Shown one piece after another: positions 1,315 to 7,121 of a DNA stretch of 7,121 nucleotides. Under the pieces are notes generated by a model. It made no database searches and was not told where the DNA came from. It was given only the letters and a program-made list of their open reading frames with translations. Source of the DNA: Candidatus Atribacteria bacterium 1244-E10-H5-B2 (GTDB lineage: Bacteria; Atribacterota; JS1; SB-45; 34-128); assembly GCA_003575245.1 (NCBI GenBank), contig NMQN01000337.1, positions 1 through 7,121 of the forward strand. The letters run 5' to 3'. Position 1 is the stretch's first letter. Every line of letters starts with the position of its first letter. Made by a program: the position numbers and the translations under genes.

Positions 1315-1511
1315 ATCGATTTTTGACTTTCTTTTTTCGAGGATAGGCAAAATATTTGCTATTAGGGTATATAAGATCCTTTTCCTTTTCGTGAGTGATT
1401 CGGAGTTAATCCAGATCTTCCCGGTATGGATCAGGACCGGGCAATCAATTCGTATTTAACTCAATGTGTATTCTGTTAAATTAGAAAACTTATATAAAAT
1501 AAGGGTTACAG
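1239..1511 (+). repeat. Direct repeat pair TATAAAAT..GGGTTACAG (1239-1257 and 1493-1511)
   Basis: TATAAAATGGGGGTTACAG at 1239-1257 and TATAAAATAAGGGTTACAG at 1493-1511 match at 17 of 19 positions, 254 bases apart. Each starts with a -10-like TATAAAAT followed by GGGTTACAG, so they could be duplicated promoter or operator modules, or arm-type recombinase sites. Both are upstream of the recombinase gene. Confidence 0.5.
1403..1462 (+). repeat. Nested dyad upstream of the recombinase gene
   Basis: GAGTTAA (1403-1409) pairs with TTAACTC (1456-1462) and encloses CCCGGT (1420-1425) pairing with ACCGGG (1436-1441). An alternative inner stem uses GATC at 1414-1417 and 1429-1432. It may be a cruciform site or an RNA leader element; there is no direct evidence for either. 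Confidence 0.4.
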
Positions 1512-1610
1512 GATATTCGAATTTATTTTGATAGGATACTTGCTTTTTTGTTTACCTTATGTTAAACTTTGATTAGTTAGATAAAATATATTATAGGGGG
1601 TAAAAAAGTT

Positions 1611-3336: not shown

Positions 3337-3350
3337 TAAAGAATCGAATC

Positions 3351-3433
3351 TCGGCGGTCCGGATCTTTTCCAATTCCTTTTTGGACTGCCGGTCCCTGCT
3401 CTCTGGTTTTAGTGCATACCCAGGGAGCAGGGA
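3351..3433 (+). repeat. Tandem-hairpin element, copy 1
   Basis: Two adjacent hairpins. Stem 1 pairs CGGCGGTCC (3352-3360) with GGACTGCCG (3383-3391), including one G-U pair, and can extend by three more pairs. Stem 2 pairs CCCTGCTCTCTGG (3394-3406) with CCAGGGAGCAGGG (3420-3432), 13 pairs with one T-G wobble, plus one outer T-A pair. The stems are two bases apart. There is no T run after stem 2, so it is not an ordinary terminator. The next gene's SD starts 12 bases downstream. A related copy lies at 3735-3814 with compensating changes in stem 1, which supports a conserved RNA structure. Confidence 0.75.
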
Positions 3434-3459
3434 ATCTCTAAGAAAGGGGGTAAAAAGAA

Positions 3460-3734: not shown

Positions 3735-3814
3735 TCGGTGATCTGACTTTCTATGCGTTCTGCAGATTGCCGATCCCTGCTCTCCGTTCGTTCGGTGCTT
3801 TCGGGGAGCAGGGG
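3735..3814 (+). repeat. Tandem-hairpin element, copy 2
   Basis: Stem 1 pairs TCGGTGATCTG (3735-3745) with CAGATTGCCGA (3763-3773), 11 pairs with two wobbles. Stem 2 pairs CCCTGCTCTCCG (3775-3786) with CGGGGAGCAGGG (3802-3813), 12 pairs with one wobble at the same site as in copy 1. The stems are separated by one base. Compared with copy 1, both arms of stem 1 have changed in step while pairing is kept. No T run follows. Confidence 0.75.
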
Positions 3815-3898
3815 AATTTAGAAATTAGAGGTAACTTAGTATATATCTAAATTTATATATGATGGTAAGACTACAAAATCAAGATTATTAAGGTTAAT

Positions 3899-3949: not shown

Positions 3950-4165
3950 ATGACCATAAAAATTGATAACGAGATTTATTATACAGTCAAAGATTTAGTC
4001 AATCTTTTATCTTTAACTGAATTGACAATTAGAAGTTATTTGCGATCAGGTAAGCTTAGGGGTTATAAACCCGGGCAGTTTTGGTATATATCAAAAGCAA
4101 ATTTAAAGTTATTTTTAGAAGGCAATGAAGGCAATAAAAGAAAACGGTTTTTGGGAGTATTTTAG
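3950..4165 (+). CDS. Excisionase-like MerR/HTH_17 DNA-binding protein
   Basis: This 71-residue protein consists almost entirely of a winged helix-turn-helix of the excisionase/HTH_17 kind. YYTVKDLVNLLSL (10-22) is the first helix and turn, ELTIRSYLRSGKL (24-36) the recognition helix, and PGQFWYISKANLKLFLE (41-57) the wing and last helix. Families with this fold include recombination directionality factors (excisionases), which bend DNA at att sites, and small repressors. With a tyrosine recombinase on the same element either fits. It is the first gene behind the strong promoter at 3899-3927, whose dyad operator would suit autoregulation. The ATG at 3950 has SD AAAGGGGG. Its stop codon touches the ATG of the next gene, so the two are translationally linked. 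Confidence 0.85.
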   Translation: MTIKIDNEIYYTVKDLVNLLSLTELTIRSYLRSGKLRGYKPGQFWYISKANLKLFLEGNEGNKRKRFLGVF

Positions 4166-5840: not shown

Positions 5841-6020
5841 AGCCTTTAAGTGTTGGCTCAAAACTTGATTGGTAGAAATGAAAAAGGAGCCTGAGAGTCG
5901 AAAACAAGCTCCTCTTTCAGAAAGTAGGCACATTATGCCAAATAAAATAAAAGTAACTGAAATAGAAAACAAGAAATTTGTCATTTATATTATAACACAT
6001 AAGAATAAATTTGCAATATC
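5841..6020 (+). other. Gene-poor stretch with a hairpin and weak ORF
   Basis: A hairpin at 5879-5919 pairs TGAAA-A-AGGAGC with GCTCCT-C-TTTCA (11 pairs around one mismatch). A 70-codon frame from a TTG at 5869 to a TAA at 6081 crosses this hairpin and ends inside the next one. It has no SD at its start, and an internal ATG at 5935 has only a weak AAAGTAGG in front. I treat the stretch as non-coding, with a small chance that a 48-residue protein starts at 5935. Confidence 0.4.
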
Positions 6021-6123
6021 CCGGTCAGGTTCGTTTGGCAGACTTGACCGGTTACCCGGGGAGCGATTAAGACCTTTCTAAGGCCTGACAAATGCCTTTA
6101 CTTCTTTTAATCGTTCCACCGGG
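6021..6123 (+). promoter_or_regulatory. Tandem-hairpin leader before the second W-family pair
   Basis: Stem 1: CCGGTCAGGT (6021-6030) with ACTTGACCGG (6042-6051), 10 pairs with one wobble. Stem 2: 6055-6072 with 6105-6123, 18 pairs with two wobbles and one bulged A at 6118. Inside the large loop of stem 2 a 5-bp hairpin (6080-6084 with 6094-6098) is possible. Loop bases TGCCTTT (6093-6099) can instead pair with AAAGGTA (6141-6147), part of the SD of the gene at 6161. The layout, two adjacent stems ahead of a start codon, matches the leader at 6741-6844. Confidence 0.6.
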
Positions 6124-6160
6124 ATTCTAAAAATAAATTAAAAGGTAGGTGAAATTAAAA

Positions 6161-6412
6161 ATGTTTGGTAACAAAAAAGAGAAAGAGGAAGATCTTAAAG
6201 CTAAGGTTGGAAGATGGTGGATTGATTTGCCTTATCTGAAAAAACTCGAAATTCTACTGGAAAGAGGAACTAGATCTGGCCAATACCCTGAATATGATAT
6301 TACTGCAATCGAGAATATTGGAGTTAGGGTTTTCTGGAATTATAACAATTTAGAGAAAAAAGTCTTGATTATGGAAACATACGAAAAAGAGCATAAGAGG
6401 GAAGGGAGATAA
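6161..6412 (+). CDS. Tryptophan-rich small protein, W-x4-L-x2-K family, copy 3
   Basis: This is an 83-residue protein of unknown function. It contains WW at 19-20 followed by IDLPYLKKLEILLE (21-34), and F58-W59 followed by x4-L64-x2-K67 and a helix ending METYEKE. The second block matches the first block of the genes at 100 and 471 (compare FWEYGELEDK with FWNYNNLEKK), so here the conserved W-x4-L-x2-K block is at the C-terminus instead of the N-terminal part. It aligns end to end with the next gene. I choose the ATG at 6161 because AAAGGTAGGTG (6141-6151) is then a good SD at spacing 9. A GTG at 6149, inside that SD, would add four residues and is unlikely. The leader is heavily structured. 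Confidence 0.75.
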   Translation: MFGNKKEKEEDLKAKVGRWWIDLPYLKKLEILLERGTRSGQYPEYDITAIENIGVRVFWNYNNLEKKVLIMETYEKEHKREGR

Positions 6413-6420
6413 AAAATATT

Positions 6421-6642
6421 ATGGATTTATTTCACTTAAAAACTGATCAAGAGATTAAAAAGATGATCAACGATTTTTGGGAAGACACTGAGTATCTAAT
6501 GAAAATTCGGATCTTGCTCCGGGCCTACCCTGGATTTAATATCACAAAATTGGAGAGCAGGAATATCGAAAAAATGTGGAAATCTCTATCCCTGAAGAAA
6601 CAAAAAGATGTTTACCAGGATCAGCACTTATACCAAATATAG
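6421..6642 (+). CDS. Tryptophan-rich small protein, W-x4-L-x2-K family, copy 4
   Basis: This 73-residue protein is a paralog of the preceding gene. F19-W20 is followed by EDTEYLMKIRILL, parallel to WWIDLPYLKKLEILL in copy 3. Then comes [YF]-[DN]-IT and an E (NITKLE, 40-45), then W53-x4-L58 and KKQKDVYQD. The K at L+3 is Q61 here, with K at 60 and 62. It is shorter than copy 3 by about six residues between the two blocks. SD GAAGGGAG (6401-6408) overlaps the end of copy 3, spacing about 12, so the pair is co-transcribed. No other domain, signal or membrane segment is visible. The next gene, after a structured leader, is the primase-polymerase, but a functional link is not shown. Confidence 0.75.
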   Translation: MDLFHLKTDQEIKKMINDFWEDTEYLMKIRILLRAYPGFNITKLESRNIEKMWKSLSLKKQKDVYQDQHLYQI

Positions 6643-6740
6643 CATATTGAGGGTAGTGGAGTAAGGAGTAAGGTGAAGAAACCTTATCAGAAGCATAATT
6701 AGGGGGTAAAAAAGGGTATATAGATAATTTATAATACCCG
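6643..6740 (+). other. Upstream part of the primase leader; orphan SD and mini-ORF
   Basis: AAGGAG (6663-6668) precedes a GTG at 6673 opening a 9-codon frame that stops at 6700-6702. TAAGGT (6669-6674) pairs with ACCTTA (6681-6686). TAGGGGGTAAAAAAG (6700-6714) is identical to the recombinase SD region at 1594-1608 but is followed by no start codon. GGGTAT (6714-6719) pairs with ATACCC (6734-6739). Confidence 0.4.
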
Positions 6741-6844
6741 GCAGGTGGGCAATCGATCCTATCTGCTTTTAACCTGGCCGGCGGTTAGGGAGTTTGTAAA
6801 ATCCTTTCGCTTTAACTGTTGGCCAGGCTTGAAGAAAGGATTTT
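6741..6844 (+). promoter_or_regulatory. Structured leader of the primase gene with SD-sequestering stem
   Basis: Hairpin 1: GCAGGTGGG (6741-6749) with CCTATCTGC (6758-6766), nine pairs with two wobbles. Stem A: CCTGGCCGGCGGTTA (6773-6787) with TAACTGTTGGCCAGG (6813-6827), 15 pairs with three wobbles. Stem B: AAAATCCTTTC (6798-6808) with GAAAGGATTTT (6834-6844), 11 perfect pairs. The arms interleave (A, B, A, B), so A and B either form a pseudoknot or exclude each other. Stem B contains the only SD of the primase gene, AAAGGA (6835-6840). It looks like a translational control element. No known riboswitch class is recognised. Confidence 0.7.
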
Positions 6845-6851
6845 GTTATAT

Positions 6852-7121
6852 ATGAACAAAAAAAAATTTATACAAGAATATCTTAACAGGGGTTTTAGTT
6901 TAATTCCCTTAAAAAATAATTCTAAGGTCCCGGCTATCAGGTGGAAAAGATATCAATATACAAAGGCAAGTTTAGAGGAAATTGAAAAATGGTTTATAAC
7001 CTTTGACGATCCTAATATTGCCTTAATTACCGGGAAGGAATTAATAGTTATTGATGCAGATGATCCTTCAAAATTACCAGAATTATTTAAGCTATTACCG
7101 GAAGCAGAAAAAACTACAAGG
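6852..7121 (+). CDS. Bifunctional primase-polymerase (PrimPol), N-terminal part
   Basis: The gene runs off the window after 90 codons. The visible part is the start of an archaeo-eukaryotic-type bifunctional primase/polymerase domain, which makes primers and extends them with dNTPs during replication of plasmids and phages. Signature features: RGFSLIPLKNNSKVPAIRWK (13-32), the family's G-x-x-x-[IV]-P-L and K-x-P-x-x-x-W-K motif; NIALITGKE (55-63); and VIDADD (66-71), with D68 and D70 as the likely metal-binding DxD. The rest of the catalytic domain and any helicase domain (D5 or similar) lie beyond the window. The ATG at 6852 has SD AAAGGA (6835-6840) at spacing 11, and that SD lies inside the 11-bp stem of the leader. 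The family call is confident. Confidence 0.9.
   Translation, partial: MNKKKFIQEYLNRGFSLIPLKNNSKVPAIRWKRYQYTKASLEEIEKWFITFDDPNIALITGKELIVIDADDPSKLPELFKLLPEAEKTTR

What the first reader, a model, noticed from the sequence alone, without database searches (positions are those of the whole stretch)
6741..6852. Interleaved stems bury the SD of the primase-polymerase gene
A 15-bp stem (6773-6787 with 6813-6827) and a perfect 11-bp stem (6798-6808 with 6834-6844) interleave in pseudoknot order just before the start codon at 6852. The second stem contains the SD AAAGGA. With only six bases between the second arm of stem A and that of stem B, both full stems are hard to form together, so a two-state switch is likely. 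That would control replication initiation by RNA folding. It matches no riboswitch class I know. The pairings are seen directly; the switch is inferred.
Basis: partly seen in the sequence, partly recalled or inferred. Interest (0 to 1): 0.75.

Follow-up and report, generated by a model that had tools for sequence, protein, structure and literature searches.

The report
RNA pseudoknot gating phage replication genes
A folded RNA leader that can hide the ribosome-binding site of a replication gene in a small phage-like element is also found before two different replication genes in related phages, so it is probably a real control of when the element starts to copy itself, although what opens it is unknown.

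Summary
The window shares a tyrosine integrase (78-85% identity) with 13 IMG/VR phage records; related integrases are named from Atribacterota. A scan of window plus records (567,264 bases, both strands) for "hairpin whose loop pairs with an SD" ranks three leaders first: the window's Prim-Pol gene, an O/DnaD-like gene (L011) and an AAA_25 gene (L018). No score in 20 shuffled sets reaches the third (best shuffled -45.0, third -45.7). Stem B keeps pairing through two-sided changes. The other 11 records have no hit outside the shuffled range. No Rfam family fits. The strict two-state switch is partly supported: in window and L011 the full stems cannot coexist, but losing 2-3 pairs lets both form, and by a rough estimate that form is the more stable, so SD buried is the likely default. 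New: an upstream frame (6745-6855) starting (V/L)GNRS in window and L011, its UGA overlapping the replication AUG as AUGA in both. A ribosome crossing it would open the knot: coupling is my favoured trigger, unproven. New variant of a known kind (T4 gene 32, ColIb-P9 repZ).

The parts
6714..6739 (+). AT-rich hairpin 0 at the 5' side of the leader
   Evidence: MFE structures; no comparative support
6741..6766 (+). hairpin 1 (9 pairs, loop CAAUCGAU), sequence island shared with L011
   Evidence: 9 pairs; 91% identity over 6738-6770 with L002/L011 8892-8924; exact core in both
6773..6790 (+). stem A, 5' arm (reader: 6773-6787; extends to 18 pairs)
6796..6808 (+). stem B, 5' arm (anti-SD), in the loop of stem A
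   Evidence: two-sided changes against L011 and L018
6810..6827 (+). stem A, 3' arm
6834..6846 (+). stem B, 3' arm, contains the SD
6835..6840 (+). SD AAAGGA of the Prim-Pol gene
   Evidence: spacing to AUG 11 nt
6745..6855 (+). upstream ORF, GUG start inside hairpin 1, 36 codons, UGA stop overlapping the Prim-Pol AUG (AUGA); possible leader peptide
   Evidence: same frame and overlap in L011 8899-8988; 142 of 10000 (window) and 415 of 10000 (L011) shuffles do as well
6852..7121 (+). Prim-Pol (primase-polymerase) gene, 5' part, cut by the window end
   Evidence: PF09250 E 3.9e-11; PHROG 1156 DNA primase E 3.9e-9

Best explanation
The leader (about 6741-6852) is a cis-acting translational gate on the element's replication gene. 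In the mRNA, hairpin A presents an anti-SD in its loop; the loop pairs with the SD (stem B), forming a pseudoknot that keeps ribosomes off the Prim-Pol start codon by default. [Shown: the sequences, the possible pairings, their excess over chance, their recurrence with two-sided changes before two other replication-type genes. Inferred: the fold in cells and the repression.] The opening step I think most likely is a ribosome translating the upstream frame 6745-6855, which runs through hairpin 1 and all four stem arms and stops at the AUGA overlapping the initiator's start, so that initiation is coupled to leader translation. [Inferred; about one third likely given the gate.] A protein or antisense RNA binding hairpin 1 or A is the alternative opener or lock.
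For: (1) Window, L011 and L018 leaders are the best three (-48.5, -46.0, -45.7) of 198 hits in window + 13 records; 20 shuffled sets give 0 at or below -45.7 and 4 at or below -40, best -45.0. (2) All three precede replication-type genes of different families: Prim-Pol, O/DnaD-like (PHROG 186, 18020; no Pfam match), AAA_25 with a weak primase PHROG 2597. Pairwise BLASTP finds no similarity (E 0.32, 9.0, 0.15). (3) SD-anchored stem B: positions 4, 5, 7 and 8, and -1 and -2 between window and L018, change on both sides and stay paired (position 8 of L018 is a G-U). (4) Local shuffles with the SD kept: 0, 1 and 1 of 3000. (5) A pseudoknot with most of both stems fits the geometry in all three, and with the 5' part of the leader added is estimated below the best nested fold by 4-7 (window), 1-3 (L011) and 5-8 (L018) kcal/mol. 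(6) AUGA-overlapping upstream frame with the same beginning ((V/L)GNRS-x-LLL) in window and L011; P0152, a relative of the L011 protein, begins MGNRSYLLL.
Against: Only three leaders with DNA; hairpin 1 and the upstream frame are shared by only two; L018 has no such frame. The upstream frame has no clear SD and starts with GUG or UUG inside hairpin 1; its open length is only moderately unusual (142 and 415 of 10000 shuffles), and 24 of 274 genes surveyed, these two included, have an AUGA-overlapping upstream frame of 29+ codons. Pairing to the SD alone is reached by 38 (window) and 116 (L011) of 3000 shuffles. A shuffled set came within 0.7 of the third-best score. Energies rest on recalled pseudoknot penalties and fibre geometry, and the L011 margin is within error. 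In a nested-only fold the window's SD is free; in L011 and L018 it is buried by other pairings too. L011 and L018 proteins both match PHROG 270 weakly (E 3.1e-4 and 0.006), so they may share a small domain. Back-translation of P0003 and P0152 leaders gave weak (950 and 336 of 20000) or no support.
Confidence: 0.6

Rival explanations
1. Autogenous or trans control by protein: the replication protein, or another phage protein, binds hairpin 1 / stem A and locks the pseudoknot, as T4 gp32 does on its own mRNA.
For: The sequence-conserved hairpin 1 (33 nt at 91%) looks like a recognition site; T4 gp32 and gp43 precedents (PMC3014915, passages).
Against: Hairpin 1 is shared between leaders of two genes without detectable similarity (Prim-Pol, O/DnaD-like), so the ligand is not simply the downstream product; it was not found in L018.
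Confidence: 0.2
2. Antisense-RNA copy control: a counter-transcript pairs with hairpin 1 or A and decides whether the SD is free, as in I-complex plasmids.
For: Architecture (stem-loops, pseudoknot, replication initiator) resembles ColIb-P9 repZ as described in PMC8383071 (passage). One minus-strand promoter-like site (9 of 12) at 6947-6919 points across the leader.
Against: Promoter-like sites are no more than chance (22 found, 22.6 expected, both strands of the window); no terminator-like site on either strand at the leader.
Confidence: 0.08
3. DNA element: the arms are inverted binding sites (origin or operator) for the replication protein and the RNA pairing is incidental.
For: Inverted repeats next to a replication gene are common in origins (general knowledge).
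Against: No excess of further copies: GAAAGGATTTT occurs exactly only as the two arms and 9 times with up to 2 mismatches against 11.2 expected; 6 against 3.8 in L011 and 3 against 2.1 in L045. The arms differ between relatives but stay complementary, with one G-U pair.
Confidence: 0.08
4. Strict two-state switch: stem A complete with SD free, or stem B complete with A open.
For: Full A and full B together violate the spacer geometry in window and L011; hairpin A alone leaves the SD open in the window.
Against: In L018 the listed stems are compatible without loss; in window and L011 losing 2-3 pairs suffices.
Confidence: 0.15
5. Ordinary intergenic hairpins of an AT-rich phage that happen to pair with an SD.
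For: These phages carry many strong hairpins before genes; a shuffled set reached -45.0.
Against: The three best genes among 198 hits are all replication-type; apart from an alternative start of L018 (-40.7) the next real score is -38.2.
Confidence: 0.1

Closest known systems
T4-type phage gene 32 leader pseudoknot (autogenous repression)
   Same: Phage mRNA pseudoknot upstream of a replication gene, translational control
   Different: There the pseudoknot is placed 67 nt upstream of the start and the ribosome site lies in an unstructured A+U-rich stretch (PMC3014915, passages); here the SD itself is a pseudoknot strand and no protein is known. [quoted passage not shown]
IncI-alpha plasmid ColIb-P9 repZ; also IncL/M repA (reference title only)
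   Same: Replication initiator translated under a leader with a pseudoknot; coupling to an upstream frame (repY, recalled)
   Different: There the pseudoknot is upstream of the RBS and needed FOR translation, and antisense Inc RNA prevents it (PMC8383071, passage); here the pairing covers the SD and should repress; no antisense RNA is known.
SD-sequestering pseudoknot riboswitches (SAM-II, preQ1 types; recalled)
   Same: SD used as a pseudoknot strand
   Different: No conserved aptamer core seen across the three leaders, no Rfam match above cut-off, gene context is replication.
STAXI motif
   Same: Pseudoknot motif near DNA-processing genes including XerDC integrases (PMC2864571, passage)
   Different: STAXI is repeated two or three times in tandem; not among the Rfam matches here

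Membership tests
T4 gene 32-type operator | Pseudoknot in the leader of a phage replication gene | tested here: met
   By prediction only
T4 gene 32-type operator | Pseudoknot well upstream with an unstructured A+U-rich ribosome site | tested here: not met
   SD 6835-6840 lies in stem B
T4 gene 32-type operator | Bound by the gene's own product | not testable with these tools
   Needs binding assays
ColIb-P9 repZ-type leader | Upstream frame coupled to the initiator (recalled) | tested here: inconclusive
   AUGA-overlapping frame in window and L011, none in L018
ColIb-P9 repZ-type leader | Pseudoknot outside the RBS, required for translation | tested here: not met
   Position: stem B includes the SD; the effect on translation was not testable
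ColIb-P9 repZ-type leader | Antisense RNA on the opposite strand | tested here: inconclusive
   Promoter-like sites at chance level, one 9-of-12 site at 6947-6919 on the minus strand; no expression data
Known riboswitch or other Rfam family | Match to a covariance model | tested here: not met
   Window: seven matches with E 0.21 to 4.1, all far below gathering scores, all miRNA or sRNA models; two of them overlap stem A (6766-6834). L011 and L045: one such match, elsewhere in L045

The most novel reading that the evidence does not exclude
A transferable 'replication gate': phages of Atribacterota keep one RNA module (hairpin 1, a hairpin with an anti-SD loop, an SD pseudoknot and a leader frame ending in AUGA) while the replication gene behind it is exchanged for one of another family, so the RNA, not the protein, carries the regulatory identity of the replication module, and translation of the leader frame is the signal that licenses replication.
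Probability: 0.22. Interest if true: 0.75.

Novelty: new variant of a known kind. Interest (0 to 1): 0.52.

Why it matters
Phage and plasmid replication genes are usually thought of as controlled by promoters, repressors or antisense RNA. An RNA pseudoknot that hides the SD and recurs before replication genes of three families in one phage group would add a translational licence step to phage replication in an uncultivated phylum, and would suggest that a leader RNA can outlast the gene it controls.

Tried and rejected
Homologues of the Prim-Pol leader: exact-peptide and profile scans of viral contigs found none at usable distance (only L030 at 36%; I saw no such leader by eye). blastn of 6500-7121 against plasmid and phage collections: no match. 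Pattern scans for hairpin 1 in viral contigs gave L010 (same contig as L002/L011) plus four loci judged unrelated by reading (L009, L032-L034). The genome-contig scan with the integrase gave 5 distant loci (23-30%), none titled Atribacterota, so host genomes could not be searched. Scans with the L018 and L011 proteins returned only their own contigs.

Back-translation of the N-terminally extended ORFs P0003 and P0152: a free search is not significant (stem A alone reached by 192 and 263 of 2000 residue shuffles, A+B by 799 and 943); anchored on the stem A 3' arm it is weakly so (950 and 336 of 20000). I chose the anchored test after the free one failed, so it is only suggestive.

MAFFT aligns the leaders' structured parts badly, so no covariance model was built; the stem B comparison is SD-anchored by script. 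O-type leaders as extra members: set aside, they carry a different two-hairpin element. L048 start 19214 (-38.2) was set aside as within the shuffled range. DNA repeats: none in 6300-7121 by the repeat finder, one weak tandem at 6658-6673, no excess of operator copies.

Full report
WHAT THE WINDOW IS. 7.1 kb of AT-rich, short-gene DNA; the ORFs with curated profile matches are on the + strand: a tyrosine integrase (1611-2189, PF00589), an HTH_17 protein (3950-4165) and, at the right end, the first 90 codons of a Prim-Pol gene (PF09250) (PHROG DNA primase). No host genome is held. The integrase has relatives at 78-85% identity in 13 IMG/VR records. Of 1702 database relatives the best 120 were listed; two of these (79 and 94% identity) are named from Candidatus Atribacteria bacterium 1244-E10-H5-B2, others from subsurface or marine sediment metagenomes. 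So this is most likely a temperate phage or phage-like element of Atribacterota. No capsid or terminase gene was recognised among the ORFs that I scanned (10, further ones), so 'phage' is by kinship.

THE OBSERVATION. Coordinates are right. Stem A extends from 15 to 18 pairs and B from 11 to 13 with G-U pairs. Upstream lie two more hairpins (6714-6739, 6741-6766). The nested fold is much more stable than shuffles (z -4.24 and -4.34).

RELATED LEADERS. A 33-nt island around hairpin 1 recurs at 91% in L002/L011, directly before a gene for a 120-residue O/DnaD-like protein (no Pfam match). There the same order follows: stem A GCCAGUGGGGAGU/GCUCCCUGCUGGU, stem B CAACCCCUU/AAGGGGUUG with the SD, AUG 8985. 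I scanned 14 sources and then the window plus the 13 records in full (567,264 bases on both strands with small overlaps, nine of the records refetched in 15 stretches) for start codons with an SD that pairs with the loop of an upstream hairpin. Of 198 hits the three best genes are the window (-48.5), L011 (-46.0) and L018/L045 (-45.7; an AAA_25 protein). Twenty dinucleotide-shuffled copies of the whole set gave none at or below -45.7, 4 at or below -40, 16 at or below -36, best -45.0. The set holds 417 SD-started ORFs of 45+ codons, overlaps and near-duplicates included. The other 11 records have no hit outside the shuffled range (best -38.2); three of their replication genes tested by profile are O-like (L035, L039, L042). 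Three of these records (G007, G008, G010) are near-duplicates by their ORFs, so the negatives are not 11 independent cases, and some are fragments in which I recognised no replication gene.

COVARIATION. With stem B aligned on the SD, pairs differ on both sides and are kept: position 4 U-A/C-G/C-G, 5 A-U/C-G/C-G, 7 A-U/A-U/C-G, 8 A-U/C-G/U-G (window/L011/L018), and -1, -2 between window and L018. Positions 0-3 (the SD core) and 6 are constant and say nothing. With three sequences this is good but not decisive. Hairpin 1 by contrast differs in three places without compensation; L011 has two mismatches there, so its conservation is of sequence rather than pairing.

ENERGY AND GEOMETRY. Six spacer nucleotides cannot cross an 18-bp or 15-bp stem A if B is full; dropping three pairs of B, or two outer pairs of A, is enough in the window, and one to three pairs in all in L011; L018 needs no loss. 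With pseudoknot penalties of 7.0-9.6 kcal/mol (recalled), pseudoknot plus 5' part is estimated below the best nested fold of the same stretch by 4-7 (window), 1-3 (L011) and 5-8 (L018) kcal/mol. Against hairpin A alone the gap is larger, but for L018 that figure counts only its 9-bp outer helix and overstates the gain. So SD buried is the likelier resting state, with little margin in L011. In L011 and L018 even nested folding buries the SD (mean unpaired 0.08 and 0.02), in the window it does not (0.95). L011 also has a second anti-SD in hairpin 1 (CGAUCCCUU with AAGGGGUUG, -15.2); in the window the matching pairing is 6 bp (GAUCCU/AGGAUU).

THE UPSTREAM FRAME. Listing short ORFs showed a frame from GUG 6745 to UGA 6853-6855 (36 codons) overlapping the Prim-Pol AUG as AUGA. 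L011 has the same: UUG 8899 to UGA 8986-8988, AUG at 8985. Both read (V/L)GNRS(Y/L)LLL at the start. P0152, a 156-residue relative of the L011 protein, begins MGNRSYLLL and runs in frame into the protein, so there the frame does not end at the start codon. L018 has no such frame. Shuffles of 200 nt of leader reach the observed length in 142 (window) and 415 (L011) of 10000; 24 of 274 genes in the set, these two included, have a comparable overlap; many of the others may be ordinary overlapping genes, which I did not check. No good SD serves the frame (reading). So it may be a leader peptide or a by-product of a conserved RNA; the three substitutions in the island (one swapping GUG for UUG, two in one codon) do not decide. 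L011 has in addition an AUG-started frame 8879-8971 over the same stretch.

MECHANISM. Best supported: a translational gate by SD burial (0.6). Most likely opener: leader translation ending at AUGA, which would melt A and B and leave a terminating ribosome on the initiator's start. Alternatives: a phage protein on hairpin 1, or antisense RNA. Each is stated with its refutation in the rival list.

KNOWN SYSTEMS. Papers: PMC3014915, PMC8383071, PMC10724649 and PMC2864571, all as passages only. T4 gene 32 and ColIb-P9 repZ are the nearest; in both descriptions the ribosome site is outside the pseudoknot. Full-text searches for pseudoknot with SD and replication initiation (4 papers), for Atribacterota viruses (15 of 25 and 12 of 95 listed), for pseudoknot, sequestration and primase (1), for structured RNA motifs in phages (12 of 37 listed) and for upstream frames with coupling and pseudoknots (0) showed no description of this leader in the titles and abstract beginnings listed; these cover open-licence papers only. 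Hence 'new variant of a known kind'.

Noticed in passing
window 3350-3436 and 3735-3817; L011 2903-3000; L035, L039, L049 (minus strands), L041: A recurrent two-hairpin intergenic element (core TGCCGnTCCCTGC) in these phages: 7 exact-core copies, of which L039 and L041 show the same sequence; on 6 aligned copies 8 of 27 consensus pairs show two-sided changes. In L035, L039 and L049 it lies about 180-195 nt upstream of a replication-type gene (L049's not profile-tested), with a very short ORF behind a good SD in between (my reading).
   Followed up: partly
window 6018-6161: Another tandem pair of strong hairpins directly before the ORF at 6161 (fold of 5990-6165, z -4.85); loop-to-SD pairing is only about 6-7 bp by eye.
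   Followed up: partly
L038, L039 (minus strands), L041, leaders of MKKLTVLV... genes: Long hairpins such as GGCCUGGCUCGGUUA.../...CCUUUAACCGGGCCAGGCC resemble the window's stem A in sequence but precede a gene that looks like a lipoprotein (my reading).
   Followed up: no
window 1448-1610 and 2334-2579: Intergenic stretches flanking the integrase are conserved (about 71-82%) with several relatives; candidates for the integrase promoter and the attachment site.
   Followed up: no
L011 (10,191 bp record): The two ends of the record appear to overlap (the same gene start is seen at both ends), so it may be a complete circular phage genome of about 10 kb.
   Followed up: no
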